From positions 1-49,956 of IMG/VR virus record IMGVR_UViG_3300019776_000662: a stretch of DNA of 49,956 nucleotides; one strand, 5' to 3'. The first letter of the stretch is position 1; each line of letters opens with the position of its first letter. This DNA comes from a virus. Under the pieces are notes generated by a model. The model was given only the letters and a program-made list of their open reading frames with translations. It was not told the origin of the DNA and made no database searches. Below, in pieces: positions 11,304 through 43,346 of this stretch. The translations under genes and the position numbers were made by a program.

Positions 11304-11331
11304 ATACGCTTTGCTAAAAATACTTTTAAAT

Positions 11332-11366
11332 AGTGCTTTCAATATAAGCACTTTTTGCGATATTTG
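11332..11366 (+). promoter_or_regulatory. Dispersed inverted repeat plus -10-like box before the holin
   Basis: AGTGCTT (11332-11338), 7-nt spacer, AAGCACT (11346-11352), then GATATTTG at 11359-11366, one base from the TAnnTTTG box. No TTTG -33 element is placed correctly. It is a member of a family of five such repeats (see 15073, 33322, 40316 and 43298). It is probably an operator or activator site for lysis gene expression. Confidence 0.5.
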
Positions 11367-32577: not shown

Positions 32578-32966
32578 AATCAAGTGAATTATTGAGCCCT
32601 AGGTTTGAAGTAATAGGAGAGTATCCAAAGTGTGAATTCTTAAACGGTCAAATCCTTTGCAGGATTAAATACGCAACGAATGATTGCTATCATGTAGATG
32701 AAAATGCCCCTGTTGGCGGTCTTGATTTATCCGAGCTAGAAAAATACCCTCACCTATTCCGCAAAATGAACTGGTGGGAGAAAAGAAAAATTGAAGATAT
32801 GCCTTCGCGTTTAGTTTCATTACTCGATAATAGTGATCAACCCGAAGTTTTCGACATAGTTGGTTGGGACATGGAAAACCTACTCGGATGGATTGATGTC
32901 AAAACCCGTGAGTGTTGCTCTCTTTTATCCTTTAAACCCGAATACTCATATATCCCAGTAGATTAA
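32574..32966 (+). CDS. Hypothetical protein
   Basis: 130 residues, several Cys and Trp (WWEKRKIEDM, NLLGWIDVKTRECCSL). No family recognised. Coupled to the genes before and after (ATGA at its start, TAATG at its end). It precedes the nuclease gene and probably belongs to the same early transcript. Confidence 0.5.
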   Translation: MKSSELLSPRFEVIGEYPKCEFLNGQILCRIKYATNDCYHVDENAPVGGLDLSELEKYPHLFRKMNWWEKRKIEDMPSRLVSLLDNSDQPEVFDIVGWDMENLLGWIDVKTRECCSLLSFKPEYSYIPVD

Positions 32967-33310
32967 TGAAACAGCCAATTAAAGCGGCAATAAAGCCCCA
33001 AACAGATATGTTCGTTCTTACCACATACAAGCAGCTTGGAATAAAATTCGATAAAGAGTTCCGCTTCCATCCAAAACGATTATGGCGGTTTGATTATGCG
33101 AATGAGCATTACAAGATAGCTATTGAGGTAGAGGGCGGTGTGTGGACTGCTGGGAGGCACACCAGAGGCAAAGGATTTCTTGGTGATGTTGAGAAGTATA
33201 ACGAGGCTACAGCAATGGGGTGGCGTGTATTCCGAACCACTCCAGACGCATTAATCACAAGTAATACACTTAATTTAATTAAGCGTGCTATTATGAAAGA
33301 AAATCTTTAG
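32966..33310 (+). CDS. PD-(D/E)XK nuclease (VSR/DUF559-like)
   Basis: 114 residues. FRFHPKRLWRFDYANEHYKIAIEVEGGVWTAGRHTRGKGF...DVEKYNEATAMGWRVFRTT shows the core of the restriction-endonuclease-like fold: catalytic Asp in RFDY, then Glu-X-Glu (IEVEGG) and a helix-strand (GWRVFR). Phages often have this protein near the end of the early region, in the place of a Holliday-junction resolvase. The stop codon overlaps a TAGATTTG promoter box. Confidence 0.85.
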   Translation: MKQPIKAAIKPQTDMFVLTTYKQLGIKFDKEFRFHPKRLWRFDYANEHYKIAIEVEGGVWTAGRHTRGKGFLGDVEKYNEATAMGWRVFRTTPDALITSNTLNLIKRAIMKENL

Positions 33311-33346
33311 ATTTGTGTTTTAAAGTGCTTGTATTAAAAGCGCTTT
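33308..33346 (+). promoter_or_regulatory. Promoter box and dispersed inverted repeat before the ParB genes
   Basis: TAGATTTG (33308-33315) matches the -10-type box exactly and contains the nuclease stop codon. It is followed by AAAGTGCTT (33322-33330), a 7-nt spacer, and AAGCGCTTT (33338-33346), a near-perfect inverted repeat with one G-T. Here the repeat lies downstream of the box, in the position of an operator or 5'-UTR hairpin. Confidence 0.5.
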
Positions 33347-33366
33347 TCAATTCAATCTAAAAAAAT

Positions 33367-33969
33367 ATGCAGTTAATTAAAATCAACAAGTTAGAAGAGA
33401 ATCGAGGGCAGATTGAAGGTTTGCCCTCGAATCCTCGATTTATCAAAGACGATAAATTTAAGAAGCTTCGAAAGTCAATCGAAGAAGATCCCGAGATGTT
33501 AACCCTTAGACCAATACTTGTATTCCCACACGAAGGTAAATTCATTGTTATTGGTGGCAATATGCGATATCGTGCTGTTATTGAGCTAGGTTATAAGGAA
33601 GTTGCGTGCATGGTTATTCAACCAGATACTCCAATTGAGAAGCTAAAAGCCTACACCATCAAGGATAACGCATCATTTGGCGAATGGGACTGGGATTTAT
33701 TGGCCAATGAATGGGAGGAAGCTGAACTAAAAGAGTGGGGTGTTGACGTTTGGAATACTGATCCTGAACCTGAGGAGAAAGTTGATTTTGATGCGGATTA
33801 TAACGGAACTGTTTCTCAAGTCAATTATTTGAAGTTTGGAAAGGTGAAAGTGATGATCACTGATGAAGAGCTTCAAGTGCTTTATCAAAAACATAAAGAG
33901 TACTTAGATGAGTTCAAAATTGACTCTGGATTTGTAACAAAATACTTTATCGAGAATGGAAGTAATTAG
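33367..33969 (+). CDS. ParB/Srx-domain protein, first of a tandem pair
   Basis: 200 residues. N-terminal ParB/sulfiredoxin-like domain (about 1-110) with NPRFIKDDKFKKLRKSIEE, PILVFPHEGKFIVIGGNMRYRAVIELG and a helical end. ParB-fold domains hydrolyse nucleotides or act on DNA. Here the domain stands alone with an acidic C-terminal tail (EPEEKVDFDADY). It overlaps the second ParB gene by 14 bp and lies just upstream of the terminase, the place where phage DNA-modification genes are often seen. Confidence 0.75.
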   Translation: MQLIKINKLEENRGQIEGLPSNPRFIKDDKFKKLRKSIEEDPEMLTLRPILVFPHEGKFIVIGGNMRYRAVIELGYKEVACMVIQPDTPIEKLKAYTIKDNASFGEWDWDLLANEWEEAELKEWGVDVWNTDPEPEEKVDFDADYNGTVSQVNYLKFGKVKVMITDEELQVLYQKHKEYLDEFKIDSGFVTKYFIENGSN

Positions 33970-35383
33970 CCTTGACACAATTAAAGGGGCTGAATACAAC
34001 CCTCGATTTCTAAGCGATCAAGCATTTGATAACCTTAAGGACTCTTTGCGCTCTTTAGGTATTGTTAAGCCTATTATTGTGAGGCGTGAAAATATGACAA
34101 TTGTAGCAGGTCACCAGAGAACCAAAGCGATGCGTAGTCTTGGGATCAAAGAAACACCGGCTATTATATTGAATAACATATCACTTCAAGAGGAGGTTTT
34201 ATTCAACCAACTTCACAACGGTTCCGATTATGAATATGAAAATGACCAGCCATTTGTTAGGATTAATGGAATTGTCCTAAAAGCCGGTGAGTTTATTGAG
34301 GTAGAGCCAAAGAATGTTGAGATAGTAAAGATGCAAGGCAATATTGTGAAAGCTGAGTCTTTGCAAAAGATGATTTTGAAGTATGGCCCATTTGGTAGTT
34401 GTATTGCTGATGAATTTGGTAACGTCATCATATCTAGCGTTTACGCTTCCGTTTGCAAACTGACTGGAAAGAAACTACTTGTTAGGGTTATCGAGAACAA
34501 TTTAAGAGAGACAGCGATTAGCTTCTTTTCGCTCAATTATGGCGTGTTCAATTACGACAATCTGCCGAAGAAAACCTACATGCAGTCTTTGGCTCAAATG
34601 AAGCGTTCGGTGCATTTGAGTACTGAGAAAAAAGAGGCCTTGAATAAGCTGAATAAAAGCACTCTTTACGAACAGAGAGTAATACCATACCTCAAATACA
34701 ATAAAGGGTTAAGAGTGCTTGATTTTGGGGCTGGACGTAAGAGTTATGTCTCTCTATTGAAACAGCAAGGTTACGATATTCATGGTTTGGAGTTCTATTT
34801 CCGTGAGGGTGATAACAATTCAATTAGCACTGGTATAGTTGAGAGGGATATTGACACCATTATTCGGAGCATTAAAGAGCATGGCCGTTACGATGTTGTA
34901 GTCTGTGATAGTGTATTAAATAGCGTTGATAGTTTAGAGGCAGAATTTGGAGTGCTTTCAACACTTTCTGCATTGTGCAAAAAAGATGGGGTTGTGTTTT
35001 GGTCTGGTCGCCCTTATGAAGCAACAAAAAGACTCATAGATAGAACTACGATCAAAGCATCGCATCGAAACGAGGTGCGGTTCTTTGATAATAATTACTT
35101 CTCAGCTACCATTCGTTACGGACAATGGTACTACCAAAAATTTCATTCAAAGGAGCAAGTAAAAGAGCTTTCATCAAAGATATACGGTGATAGTTATAGC
35201 TATTTCAATGAAGGCACTGCGTTCCATGTTGTGGCAAGAAACCAGAGGTGTTTAGATCAAAAGGAATTAGATCGAGGAGTGAAGTTTGAATTCTCATTAC
35301 CATTACCCCAGGGCAAAAGGTATGAAAGAGCTGCTGATATTTTAAATGCCCTAATGATTTGCGATAATCAATTCAAAGACTAG
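33956..35383 (+). CDS. ParB/Srx domain fused to a Rossmann methyltransferase-like domain
   Basis: 475 residues. N-terminal ParB/Srx domain (about 1-75): NPRFLSDQAFDNLKDSLRSLG, IVAGHQRTKAMRSLG. Middle region (about 80-230) unknown. C-terminal class I methyltransferase-like domain (about 235-425): motif I LRVLDFGAGRKSYVSLL (252-268), and motif-IV-like YDVVVCDSVLNSV (312-324). The usual DNA-methylase motif (NPPY or DPPY) is absent; the SVLN type is seen in small-molecule and other methyltransferases. It is paired with a second ParB gene and located next to the terminase. A DNA modification or nucleotide-chemistry role is an inference. Confidence 0.7.
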   Translation: MEVISLDTIKGAEYNPRFLSDQAFDNLKDSLRSLGIVKPIIVRRENMTIVAGHQRTKAMRSLGIKETPAIILNNISLQEEVLFNQLHNGSDYEYENDQPFVRINGIVLKAGEFIEVEPKNVEIVKMQGNIVKAESLQKMILKYGPFGSCIADEFGNVIISSVYASVCKLTGKKLLVRVIENNLRETAISFFSLNYGVFNYDNLPKKTYMQSLAQMKRSVHLSTEKKEALNKLNKSTLYEQRVIPYLKYNKGLRVLDFGAGRKSYVSLLKQQGYDIHGLEFYFREGDNNSISTGIVERDIDTIIRSIKEHGRYDVVVCDSVLNSVDSLEAEFGVLSTLSALCKKDGVVFWSGRPYEATKRLIDRTTIKASHRNEVRFFDNNYFSATIRYGQWYYQKFHSKEQVKELSSKIYGDSYSYFNEGTAFHVVARNQRCLDQKELDRGVKFEFSLPLPQGKRYERAADILNALMICDNQFKD

Positions 35384-35387
35384 GAAT

Positions 35388-35828
35388 ATGGAACTAAAGG
35401 ACAAAGGCAAAAGAAGCTACAACAAAGCGGCCATGAAAGAACTGGCTCTTGATGCTATAAAGAAGTATAGACTCTTCTTTATTGATGACCTATGGGCCTA
35501 TGTTCCATATTCGCGCCCTTTATTCTATAAAAAGGGTCTTGATAAAGACGATGAAATAAGAGACGCAATACTTAACAGCAAAATAACTACTAAAGGAGAG
35601 CTAAGAAAGAAGTGGCGAGATAACTTCAATCCTACAACTTCAATTGCCTTGTATCGTCTTATATGTAGTGATGAGGAACGTGATGCTTTATCCTACAATA
35701 AACACGAGGTTACTGGTCCAAAGGGAGAGGCGTTATTTCCCAAAATTGGCGAGATAGATATATCAAAACTCACAGACGAAGAAAAGGCTGTTTTACTCAA
35801 AGTATCAAGACTCACAAAGATAGAGTAG
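35388..35828 (+). CDS. terS: Terminase small subunit
   Basis: 146 residues. It sits directly upstream of the large terminase, one base apart, which is where TerS belongs. It is helical with a basic first half, and SIALYRLICSDEERDAL resembles the Bacteroidetes phage TerS pattern. It recognises phage DNA to start packaging. It does not carry an obvious signature, so position is the main support. Confidence 0.75.
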   Translation: MELKDKGKRSYNKAAMKELALDAIKKYRLFFIDDLWAYVPYSRPLFYKKGLDKDDEIRDAILNSKITTKGELRKKWRDNFNPTTSIALYRLICSDEERDALSYNKHEVTGPKGEALFPKIGEIDISKLTDEEKAVLLKVSRLTKIE

Positions 35829-37304
35829 ATGTCAATTAACACACAGCTAATGATAGCACATAAGGTTGAGAGCGATGTCTGTAAGGCTTCGCTTTTCGAG
35901 TTTATGAAATCGTTCTGGGGTGTTATTATTAATGAAGAGCCTGTTTATAATTGGCATATCAAATTTCTATGTGACGAACTTCAAAAAGTAGGTGAACTCA
36001 TCATTAATCGTCAACCAAAGGAATACGATGTAATCATTAACGTTCCTCCGGGTTCTACCAAGACGACTATTGCTCTAATTATGTTCCCCGCTTGGTTGTG
36101 GGCAAGAGCGCCATGGATTAGAATTATTTCAAACTCATATTCGAGTGAACTAGCTGTTGAGGCTTCAAGTAAGTCAAAAGACATCATTCAATCGGCACGA
36201 TATCGCTTATTGTTTCCTGATACTGTAATTCGTAGAGACAAAAGCGGAAAAGAGAGCTATGATACAACAAAAAATGGTGCTAGGTACACAACTTCAACGG
36301 GTGGCGCAATTACTGGGCGTCATGCTCATGTTATATTGAATGACGATCCGCAAAATACGAAGCAAGCGGATTCAAAATCTTATCGCGATCAGGCAAACGC
36401 ACATACGGCCACATTATCGACTCGTAAGGTTGACAAGAAGAATACCCCCATGATTACCATCATGCAGAGGTTACATACCGAAGATGTAACGGGTTATCTC
36501 TTAAAGCGGAAAGGGGATAAGATAAAGCACATTTGTTTGCCGGCAGAAGTATCTATTCGCGTAAATCCTCCAGAGCTAAAGGCAAATTATGTGAATGGGT
36601 TGCTTGATCCTATTCGTATCGATCGTAGCGTATTAGACGAAGCAAAGCTAGACTTAGGCTCAAGGGGGTATGCTGGCCAGATGGGGCAAGCACCAACAGT
36701 TGATGGTGGGAATATTGTTCGAAAGGATTGGTTTAAGCGTGTGTCTGCATCTGATTTCAGGCGAATGTATGAGGGAGCCGGGCGACCTCCGATCACGTTT
36801 TTTGGCGATACAGCCTACACTGAAGATGCAAAAAATGATCCGAGCGGATTCATTGCAACGTGTAAAATCGAAAATAACCTTTATGTAACGCACGCTCAGA
36901 AGGTTTTAAAGACATTTCCTGATCTCATAAAGTTTCTGCCTATATACGTGCAAGGTCATGGTTATACCGGTAGAAGTACAATAAGAATTGAGCCAAAAGC
37001 GAACGGAAAAAGTGTGGTACAACAACTTTATAGTGCAACCAAACTGAATGTAACTGAAACAGATAGCGAGCTAATAAAGGACAGTAAAGAGACCCGCTTA
37101 AATGTAGTATCTCCAAGCGTCGAGTGCGGAAGGGTTTGGTTGGTAGATGATAATTGGAACGAGGAATTTATAGATGAGATTTGCGAATTCCCAAAAGCGG
37201 CCCACGATGAATATGTGGATTTGATTAGCTATGCTATTGACTACTTCTTATTAAATGAGAAGAAACCAATCGACACAAGCGCTCTTGAACAGATGATATA
37301 CTAA
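35829..37304 (+). CDS. terL: Terminase large subunit
   Basis: 491 residues. ATPase domain: Walker A VPPGSTKTT (residues 72-80), Walker B VILNDDP (Asp172, Asp173) and coupling MQRLHTEDVTGYLL. Nuclease domain: GDTAYTE (Asp327) and C-terminal HDEYVDLISYAI with a further Asp near residue 476. It packages DNA into the prohead and cuts it. The intact motifs suggest it is active. Confidence 0.95.
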   Translation: MSINTQLMIAHKVESDVCKASLFEFMKSFWGVIINEEPVYNWHIKFLCDELQKVGELIINRQPKEYDVIINVPPGSTKTTIALIMFPAWLWARAPWIRIISNSYSSELAVEASSKSKDIIQSARYRLLFPDTVIRRDKSGKESYDTTKNGARYTTSTGGAITGRHAHVILNDDPQNTKQADSKSYRDQANAHTATLSTRKVDKKNTPMITIMQRLHTEDVTGYLLKRKGDKIKHICLPAEVSIRVNPPELKANYVNGLLDPIRIDRSVLDEAKLDLGSRGYAGQMGQAPTVDGGNIVRKDWFKRVSASDFRRMYEGAGRPPITFFGDTAYTEDAKNDPSGFIATCKIENNLYVTHAQKVLKTFPDLIKFLPIYVQGHGYTGRSTIRIEPKANGKSVVQQLYSATKLNVTETDSELIKDSKETRLNVVSPSVECGRVWLVDDNWNEEFIDEICEFPKAAHDEYVDLISYAIDYFLLNEKKPIDTSALEQMIY

Positions 37305-40293: not shown

Positions 40294-40315
40294 GAATTGA
40301 AGTTAACCCAAATTT

Positions 40316-40362
40316 AATGCTTTTATCGCAAGCACTTTTATTACTTTTACACCATAAGTTTG
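40316..40362 (+). promoter_or_regulatory. Dispersed inverted repeat and promoter box before the MuF gene
   Basis: AATGCTT (40316-40322), 7-nt spacer, AAGCACTT (40330-40337), then TAAGTTTG at 40355-40362, an exact TAnnTTTG match only 4 bp before the ATG at 40367. Such a position would give a transcript with a very short or no leader, so the start may be leaderless. Confidence 0.5.
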
Positions 40363-43297: not shown

Positions 43298-43346
43298 AAT
43301 TTTAAAGTGCTTTTAATGCAAGCACTTTAAAATTATCCTATATTTG
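43298..43346 (+). promoter_or_regulatory. Dispersed inverted repeat and promoter box before the scaffold gene
   Basis: Perfect 15-bp arms: AATTTTAAAGTGCTT (43298-43312) and AAGCACTTTAAAATT (43320-43334), spacer 7 nt. TATATTTG follows at 43339-43346 and matches the -10-type box exactly. The repeat covers the place of a -33 element, which is absent, so an activator site is likely. It is the best member of the family. Confidence 0.65.

What the first reader, a model, noticed from the sequence alone, without database searches (positions are those of the whole stretch)
33308..35383. Tandem ParB/Srx genes, the second fused to an atypical methyltransferase, beside the terminase
Two neighbouring ParB/Srx-fold genes overlap by 14 bp. 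The second carries a class I methyltransferase-like domain with motif I (LDFGAG) but an SVLN-type motif IV in place of the usual DNA-methylase NPPY/DPPY, plus an unexplained middle domain (about 80-230). The pair has its own promoter box and operator-like repeat, and lies between a PD-(D/E)XK nuclease and the terminase. The combination could modify DNA, or use nucleotides to mark phage DNA before packaging. This is the best candidate in the window for an undescribed system.
Basis: partly seen in the sequence, partly recalled or inferred. Interest (0 to 1): 0.72.

Follow-up and report, generated by a model that had tools for sequence, protein, structure and literature searches.

The report
Phage ParB and ParB-methyltransferase gene pair
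Just before its DNA-packaging genes this bacterial virus carries two linked genes, one for a nucleotide-binding protein and one for such a protein fused to a methyl-transferring enzyme; the pair recurs in unrelated viruses, often with a third undescribed gene, and most likely chemically marks the virus's nucleic acid, although no chemistry has been shown.

Summary
Gene A (33367-33969, ParB) and gene B (33956-35383, ParB plus class I methyltransferase) overlap by 14 bp and lead the packaging operon. B has near-full-length relatives in 119 phage and prophage loci of several phyla; A lies just upstream in 117 of 118 testable loci. The "unexplained middle domain" is a second, degenerate ParB-like domain, so B is ParB-psiParB-MTase. 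A third gene, C (about 150 aa, all-beta, conserved Cys/His), follows B in 87 of 117 loci but not here; C matches no Pfam, NCBIfam or PDB entry, and searching from C leads back to B in 71 of 73 usable loci. A 25-bp palindrome ahead of A occurs four times in the window, always just upstream of late operons, so the pair is probably expressed late. In the same pre-terminase slot of other phages, ParB-fold proteins partner other modification-type enzymes (ABC-GNAT, PAPS reductase, N6-adenine methylase). Best reading: late, NTP-gated, SAM-dependent marking of phage DNA before packaging (about 0.55). Substrate and chemistry are unshown. ParB-Methyltransf_23 fusions were reported as a phage domain class in 2025; the conserved A-B pair, pseudo-ParB domain and gene C appear undescribed.

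The parts
33322..33346 (.). 25-bp palindrome AAAGTGCTT-N7-AAGCGCTTT upstream of gene A; other copies at 11330-11354, 40314-40338 and 43304-43328
   Evidence: Pattern search with up to 3 mismatches: 8 strand matches (4 sites) against 0.16 expected; each site ends 20-39 bp before a + strand start codon, while intergenic DNA is at most 8.4% of the window
33308..33315 (+). TAGATTTG, fits the Bacteroidota -7 box TAnnTTTG; weak
   Evidence: Sequence; TAnnTTTG occurs 82 times, 66 expected
33367..33969 (+). Gene A: stand-alone ParB-fold protein (200 aa) with GxxR motif (GNMR)
   Evidence: ParB_N 7e-6, phrog_17622 1e-46; homologue just upstream of B in 117 of 118 testable loci
33956..35383 (+). Gene B: ParB (1-94), degenerate ParB-like domain (about 118-195), class I SAM methyltransferase (about 235-432), conserved C-terminal segment (475 aa)
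   Evidence: Pfam and PHROG; AlphaFold2 mean pLDDT 91.5, pTM 0.88; structure comparison; invariant residues in 56 homologues
33956..34237 (+). B ParB/NTP-binding domain with invariant AGHQR and E80, N84, H87, N88
   Evidence: Z 12.1-12.7, rmsd 1.5-1.7, 92 residues aligned to nucleotide-bound ParB structures; 56 of 56 conserved
34307..34540 (+). B pseudo-ParB domain: ParB-like secondary structure, GxxR motif lost
   Evidence: hhalign to the A family, E 1.4e-7, probability 94; same order of strands and helices as residues 1-94 in the model
34658..35251 (+). B methyltransferase domain: DFGxG, E279, D318/V320/N322
   Evidence: Z 12-13.4 to class I methyltransferases including METTL6, Trm9, CmoM and GNMT; conservation
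35388..35828 (+). 146-aa gene between B and the large terminase; probably small terminase subunit, by position only (context)
   Evidence: No Pfam or PHROG match
35829..37304 (+). Terminase large subunit (context)
   Evidence: phrog_38 2e-87, Terminase_6C

Best explanation
The pair is the core of a phage nucleic-acid marking module, most likely acting on the phage's own DNA. A and the N-terminal domain of B are ParB-fold nucleotide-binding switches; B's second, degenerate ParB-like domain supplies a non-catalytic surface, so A and B probably assemble through ParB-fold contacts. Nucleotide-dependent loading on DNA would place B's class I SAM methyltransferase on its target, and methylation, or another SAM-derived transfer, would mark the DNA. 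The pair heads the packaging operon and shares a palindromic element with three other late operons, so the mark would be laid down as DNA is prepared for packaging, to protect it in the next host. Gene C, present in most relatives but not here, would be an accessory that extends or recognises the mark. Shown by computation: fold assignments, conservation, linkage, shared palindrome. Inferred: complex formation, NTP use, DNA as substrate, timing, protective role.
For: A is just upstream of B in 117 of 118 testable loci, mostly with overlapping or touching ends. SAM motif DFGxG 56/56, acidic residue E279 54/56 (D in 2), D318/V320/N322 56/56; ParB P motif GHQR 56/56. B's ParB domain superposes on nucleotide-bound ParB. 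Domain order ParB-psiParB-MTase. Nearest methyltransferase structures include RNA-base or tRNA methylating enzymes METTL6, Trm9, CmoM and RNMT. The closest A relatives in cultured phages (Leptospira LE3 and LE4, 55-57% over 127 aa) directly precede an ABC-ATPase-plus-GNAT-like protein ahead of the terminase; ABC-GNAT proteins have been predicted to modify DNA bases (PMC7824862). The phage with the closest terminase (PJN03, 58%) has ParB genes plus a PAPS-reductase-family enzyme in this slot; a Streptococcus prophage has a ParB-N6 methylase and a C5 methylase there. A ParB-methyltransferase fusion, BCE_0392, produced m6dA in E. coli DNA (PMC3459991). Shared late palindrome.
Against: No chemistry was tested. 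The methyltransferase lacks every DNA-methylase signature, and its closest structures include small-molecule, tRNA and cap enzymes, so the substrate could be RNA, protein or a metabolite. No base-recognition domain was recognised. No other modification enzyme recurs near the cassette. A's GxxR arginine is replaced in about a third of homologues (R in 69 of 105 aligned), so NTP use by A is not universal. The ParB proteins of PJN03 are not detectably A homologues by pairwise BLAST. In the PNAS survey 17 of 28 tested ParB-fold proteins bound no NTP (PMC12704722).
Confidence: 0.55

Rival explanations
1. B methylates RNA or a small molecule (host tRNA, a nucleotide, a cofactor) late in infection, with the ParB domains as nucleotide sensors; DNA is not the substrate.
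For: Closest methyltransferase structures are METTL6, Trm9, CmoM, RNMT and glycine N-methyltransferase; the profile hits UbiG-type O-methyltransferases; no DNA-methylase motif.
Against: ParB-fold partners in this phage slot otherwise go with predicted or known DNA-modifying enzymes; strict linkage to packaging operons.
Confidence: 0.2
2. A and B act in packaging itself: ParB NTPases bind or nick DNA near the packaging start or regulate the terminase, with the methyltransferase as a switch on protein or DNA.
For: Position directly before the terminase genes in phages with unrelated terminases; L004 has a second A-like ParB overlapping the gene just before its terminase; ParB-fused methylase BCE_0392 was linked to DNA nicking (PMC3459991).
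Against: Brochothrix phage BtpYZU02 has B without A, several kb before the terminase; many related phages package without the cassette; the methyltransferase motifs are strictly conserved.
Confidence: 0.13
3. A or A-B is the transcription factor that binds the 25-bp palindrome and controls the late operons.
For: The palindrome lies directly upstream of A and of three other late operons; ParB proteins bind palindromic sites (established knowledge).
Against: No HTH_ParB domain and no ParA relative found in the window; does not explain the methyltransferase.
Confidence: 0.07

Closest known systems
phrog_5475 / ParB-Methyltransf_23 fusion class (PMC12704722, PNAS 2025)
   Same: B matches phrog_5475 over nearly its whole length (1e-97); the survey lists PF02195 fused to PF13489 as enriched in phages, and a bacterial ParB-SAM-methyltransferase fusion bound ATP.
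   Different: The parts read here do not mention the A partner, the pseudo-ParB domain, gene C or the terminase-side position. Whether their tested fusion belongs to this family is unknown.
Prophage ParB-N6_N4 adenine methylase fusions (BCE_0392; Streptococcus phage Javan159)
   Same: N-terminal ParB fused to a SAM methyltransferase in prophages; the Javan159 one lies before the terminase; BCE_0392 makes m6dA (PMC3459991).
   Different: The methyltransferase of the Javan159 fusion is an N6/N4 enzyme (PF01555); B's is a different class I branch and B has a second ParB-like domain.
ABC-GNAT predicted base-modification enzyme of Leptospira phages LE3 and LE4
   Same: Directly preceded by an A homologue (55-57% identity over 127 aa) and followed by the terminase.
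   Different: The catalytic partner is an ABC ATPase plus acetyltransferase-like domain, not a methyltransferase.
DndB / DpdB ParB-fold proteins of DNA-modification systems
   Same: ParB/Srx-fold nucleotide-binding partner of a DNA-modifying system (DndB: PMC10853773; DpdB from own knowledge).
   Different: Different partner enzymes; no sequence comparison made here.
CmoX / CmoA phage carboxymethylcytosine pathway (PMC12783734)
   Same: SAM-derived phage DNA modification whose genomic contexts often include a ParB-domain protein.
   Different: CmoX is a C5 methyltransferase with an SPPC motif; B has none, and no CmoA or ligase is among the recurrent families of the scanned neighbours.

Membership tests
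phrog_5475 (ParB-methyltransferase of unknown function) | Profile match over nearly the whole length | tested here: met
   E 1.3e-97, residues 5-466 to profile 7-452 of 458
ParB-CTPase/Srx fold (PF02195) | ParB_N domain above the curated cut-off | tested here: met
   B 46 bits, A 26.4 bits, cut-off 26.3; structure Z about 12 for B
ParB-CTPase/Srx fold (PF02195) | GxxR phosphate-binding motif | tested here: met
   B GHQR 56 of 56; A GNMR in the window, R in 69 of 105 homologues
ParB-CTPase/Srx fold (PF02195) | NTP binding or hydrolysis | not testable with these tools
   Needs purified protein
Canonical ParABS partition ParB | HTH_ParB (PF17762) domain | tested here: not met
   No match in the window; 9 of 14 control genomes ring
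Canonical ParABS partition ParB | Neighbouring ParA ATPase | tested here: not met
   No PF13614 match in the window; all 14 controls ring
Class I SAM methyltransferase | Rossmann fold with glycine-rich motif I and acidic residue after strand 2 | tested here: met
   D256/F257/G258/G260 56 of 56, E279 54 of 56 with D in the other 2; fold match
Class I SAM methyltransferase | Methyl transfer activity and substrate | not testable with these tools
   Needs assay
DNA N6/N4 amino-methyltransferase (PF01555) | Profile match and (D/N)PP(Y/F) motif IV | tested here: not met
   No PF01555 match in the window; motif region reads CDSVLNSV
DNA C5-cytosine methyltransferase (PF00145), including CmoX | Profile match and PC motif | tested here: not met
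   No PF00145 match to B; no PC at motif IV

The most novel reading that the evidence does not exclude
A-B(-C) is an undescribed three-part DNA-modification system: an NTP-gated ParB heterocomplex directs a non-canonical class I methyltransferase to phage DNA at packaging, and C, an all-beta Cys/His protein with no match among solved folds, carries out a second step, giving a base not yet known.
Probability: 0.2. Interest if true: 0.85.

Novelty: new variant of a known kind. Interest (0 to 1): 0.55.

Why it matters
If the module marks DNA it adds a class of modification enzyme outside the recognised DNA-methylase families, found in phages and prophages of gut Bacteroidota, Proteobacteria and Streptomyces, and gives a concrete role to ParB domains that are often fused to phage methylases for unknown reasons. 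It is directly testable, because a cultured phage (Bacteroides phage BS-TP3) carries A and B. Gene C is a conserved unannotated family tied to the cassette.

Tried and rejected
Single-sequence search for B in viral contigs found nothing; the alignment-based search worked. Partition function rejected: no HTH_ParB and no ParA. DNA N6/N4 or C5 methylase rejected by motif and profile. CmoA/CmoX-type pathway: no such enzyme recurs among the 25 commonest families of 131 scanned neighbours, though families below that list were not shown. TAnnTTTG promoter box: not clearly above chance. Gene C: no Pfam match above cut-off and no NCBIfam, PADLOC or PDB-sequence match; a PHROG scan of one representative found nothing; Foldseek against PDB gave no match below E 0.38, and the C2-like matches at Z up to 6.1 are within the range that unrelated folds reach, so the fold is unassigned rather than proven new; in BFVD only two uncharacterised phage proteins match. 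C was not found in the phage record collection by tblastn with two representatives. Iyer 2013 (gkt573) and Maindola 2014 (PMC4241021) are not held. ORF calls in GC-rich Streptomyces loci are unreliable, so linkage was counted from six-frame profile searches. The palindrome is not found in the PJN03 region.

Full report
What is there. The window is a 49,956-bp virus record with an integrase-like gene and a repressor-like gene among its ORFs (by reading). Its large terminase is closest to phage vB_RanS_PJN03 (58%) and to phages of Croceibacter and Cellulophaga, so the host is probably a member of the Bacteroidota. At 33367-33969 and 33956-35383 lie two + strand genes overlapping by 14 bp. A is a ParB-fold protein; B is a ParB domain followed by a class I methyltransferase. 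A 146-aa gene and the large terminase follow.

B is a family. An alignment search found B relatives in IMG/VR (114 matches, 80 kept) and in one-genome-per-species contigs (61). After filtering, 121 sequences in 119 loci are near full length, 57 of them below 88% identity. These collections overlap, so the counts include duplicates of one prophage. Hosts named in the titles include Bacteroidota, Streptomyces, Enterobacteriaceae, Alphaproteobacteria, Clostridia and Chlorobiaceae. Terminases downstream belong to several families, so the cassette moves between phage lineages yet keeps its place before the terminase.

A goes with B. Six-frame profile searches place an A homologue just upstream of B in 117 of 119 loci (gap at most 47 bp in 113 of them, 243-468 bp in four); one exception is truncated at the contig edge (L035) and one really lacks it (Brochothrix phage BtpYZU02, L005). 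The genes usually overlap or touch, which points to coupled translation.

A third gene. Directly downstream of B (within about 130 bp) 87 of 117 testable loci carry C, 6 of them in inverted orientation. C is 135-180 aa with invariant W17, H29, C30, Y61, C63, N74, H76, C126, R127, N128 and F131. A search started from C fetched 78 new loci: 71 have B; of the 7 without it, 5 begin at the contig edge, leaving 71 of 73 usable. C has no family match and no solved fold. On the B tree C changes state about 10 times, against a mean of 16.6 for shuffled labels, so it is an accessory gained or lost repeatedly. The window lacks C.

Anatomy of B. The AlphaFold2 model (pLDDT 91.5, pTM 0.88) shows residues 1-94 as a ParB domain that superposes on nucleotide-bound ParB (Z 12.1-12.7, rmsd 1.5-1.7 over 92 residues). 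Residues about 118-195 repeat the same order of strands and helices, and profile comparison with the A family gives E 1.4e-7, but the GxxR motif is lost: a degenerate second ParB-like copy. Direct comparison of B's first and middle domains alone is weak (E 0.0023, probability 13), so the assignment rests on the A-family comparison and the model. Residues 235-432 are a class I methyltransferase with intact SAM motifs and an invariant D318-x-V320-x-N322 at motif IV.

Control element. AAAGTGCTT-N7-AAGCRCTTT occurs at 11330, 33322, 40314 and 43304 (0 to 3 mismatches). Eight strand matches were found against a mean of 0.16 in shuffles. Every site is intergenic and ends 20-39 bp before a + strand start codon: genes 11381 (likely lysis), 33367 (A), 40367 (head) and 43368 (scaffold) (gene roles by position and by reading). 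The simplest reading is a shared late-operon element. Its binding protein is unknown.

Neighbourhood logic. The slot before the terminase holds ParB-fold proteins with other enzymes in other phages: an A homologue with an ABC-GNAT protein in Leptospira LE3 and LE4; ParB genes with a PAPS-reductase-family enzyme in PJN03, whose ParBs are not detectable A homologues; a ParB-N6 methylase with a C5 methylase in Javan159; and, downstream of A-B in L090 and its cluster mates, a DAM-like plus GNAT-phage-like protein. Published support: ABC-GNAT proteins are predicted to modify nucleobases (PMC7824862); BCE_0392 gives m6dA (PMC3459991); ParB genes accompany CmoX (PMC12783734). This is association, not proof.

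Judgement. DNA marking at packaging is the best-supported function (0.55); RNA or small-molecule methylation is the main rival (0.2). The domain fusion is known (PMC12704722); the A-B-C cassette, the pseudo-ParB domain and C appear new in the libraries and papers searched here. Absence from this partial literature library is not proof of novelty.

Noticed in passing
window 11330-11354, 33322-33346, 40314-40338, 43304-43328: Four copies of a 25-bp palindrome just upstream of late operons (lysis, A-B-terminase, head, scaffold-capsid); probably the phage's late-gene control site, binding protein unknown.
   Followed up: partly
L101 (5892-9356), L061 (1227-4695): Two complete B genes in tandem behind A genes, suggesting duplication and possible specialisation.
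   Followed up: no
L180:3998-5392: Two C paralogues without B, near two A-like ParB genes; C may also work with other ParB partners.
   Followed up: partly
L205:3653-4108: A C homologue directly before a terminase-like gene with no A or B nearby.
   Followed up: partly
L090:10535-11848: Downstream of A-B lies a protein with DAM-like-phage1 and GNAT-phage-like domains (phrog_7858), possibly a further modification enzyme.
   Followed up: partly
window 32966-33310: Small gene of phrog_503 (unknown function) that reads like a PD-(D/E)XK nuclease (WRFDYA..AIEVEGG) but matches no Pfam family.
   Followed up: partly
L106:10381-12054 and related Bacteroidales loci (L057, L101-L104): A SNF2-family helicase gene sits between C and the terminase in this subgroup, a recurrent neighbour of A-B-C.
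   Followed up: no
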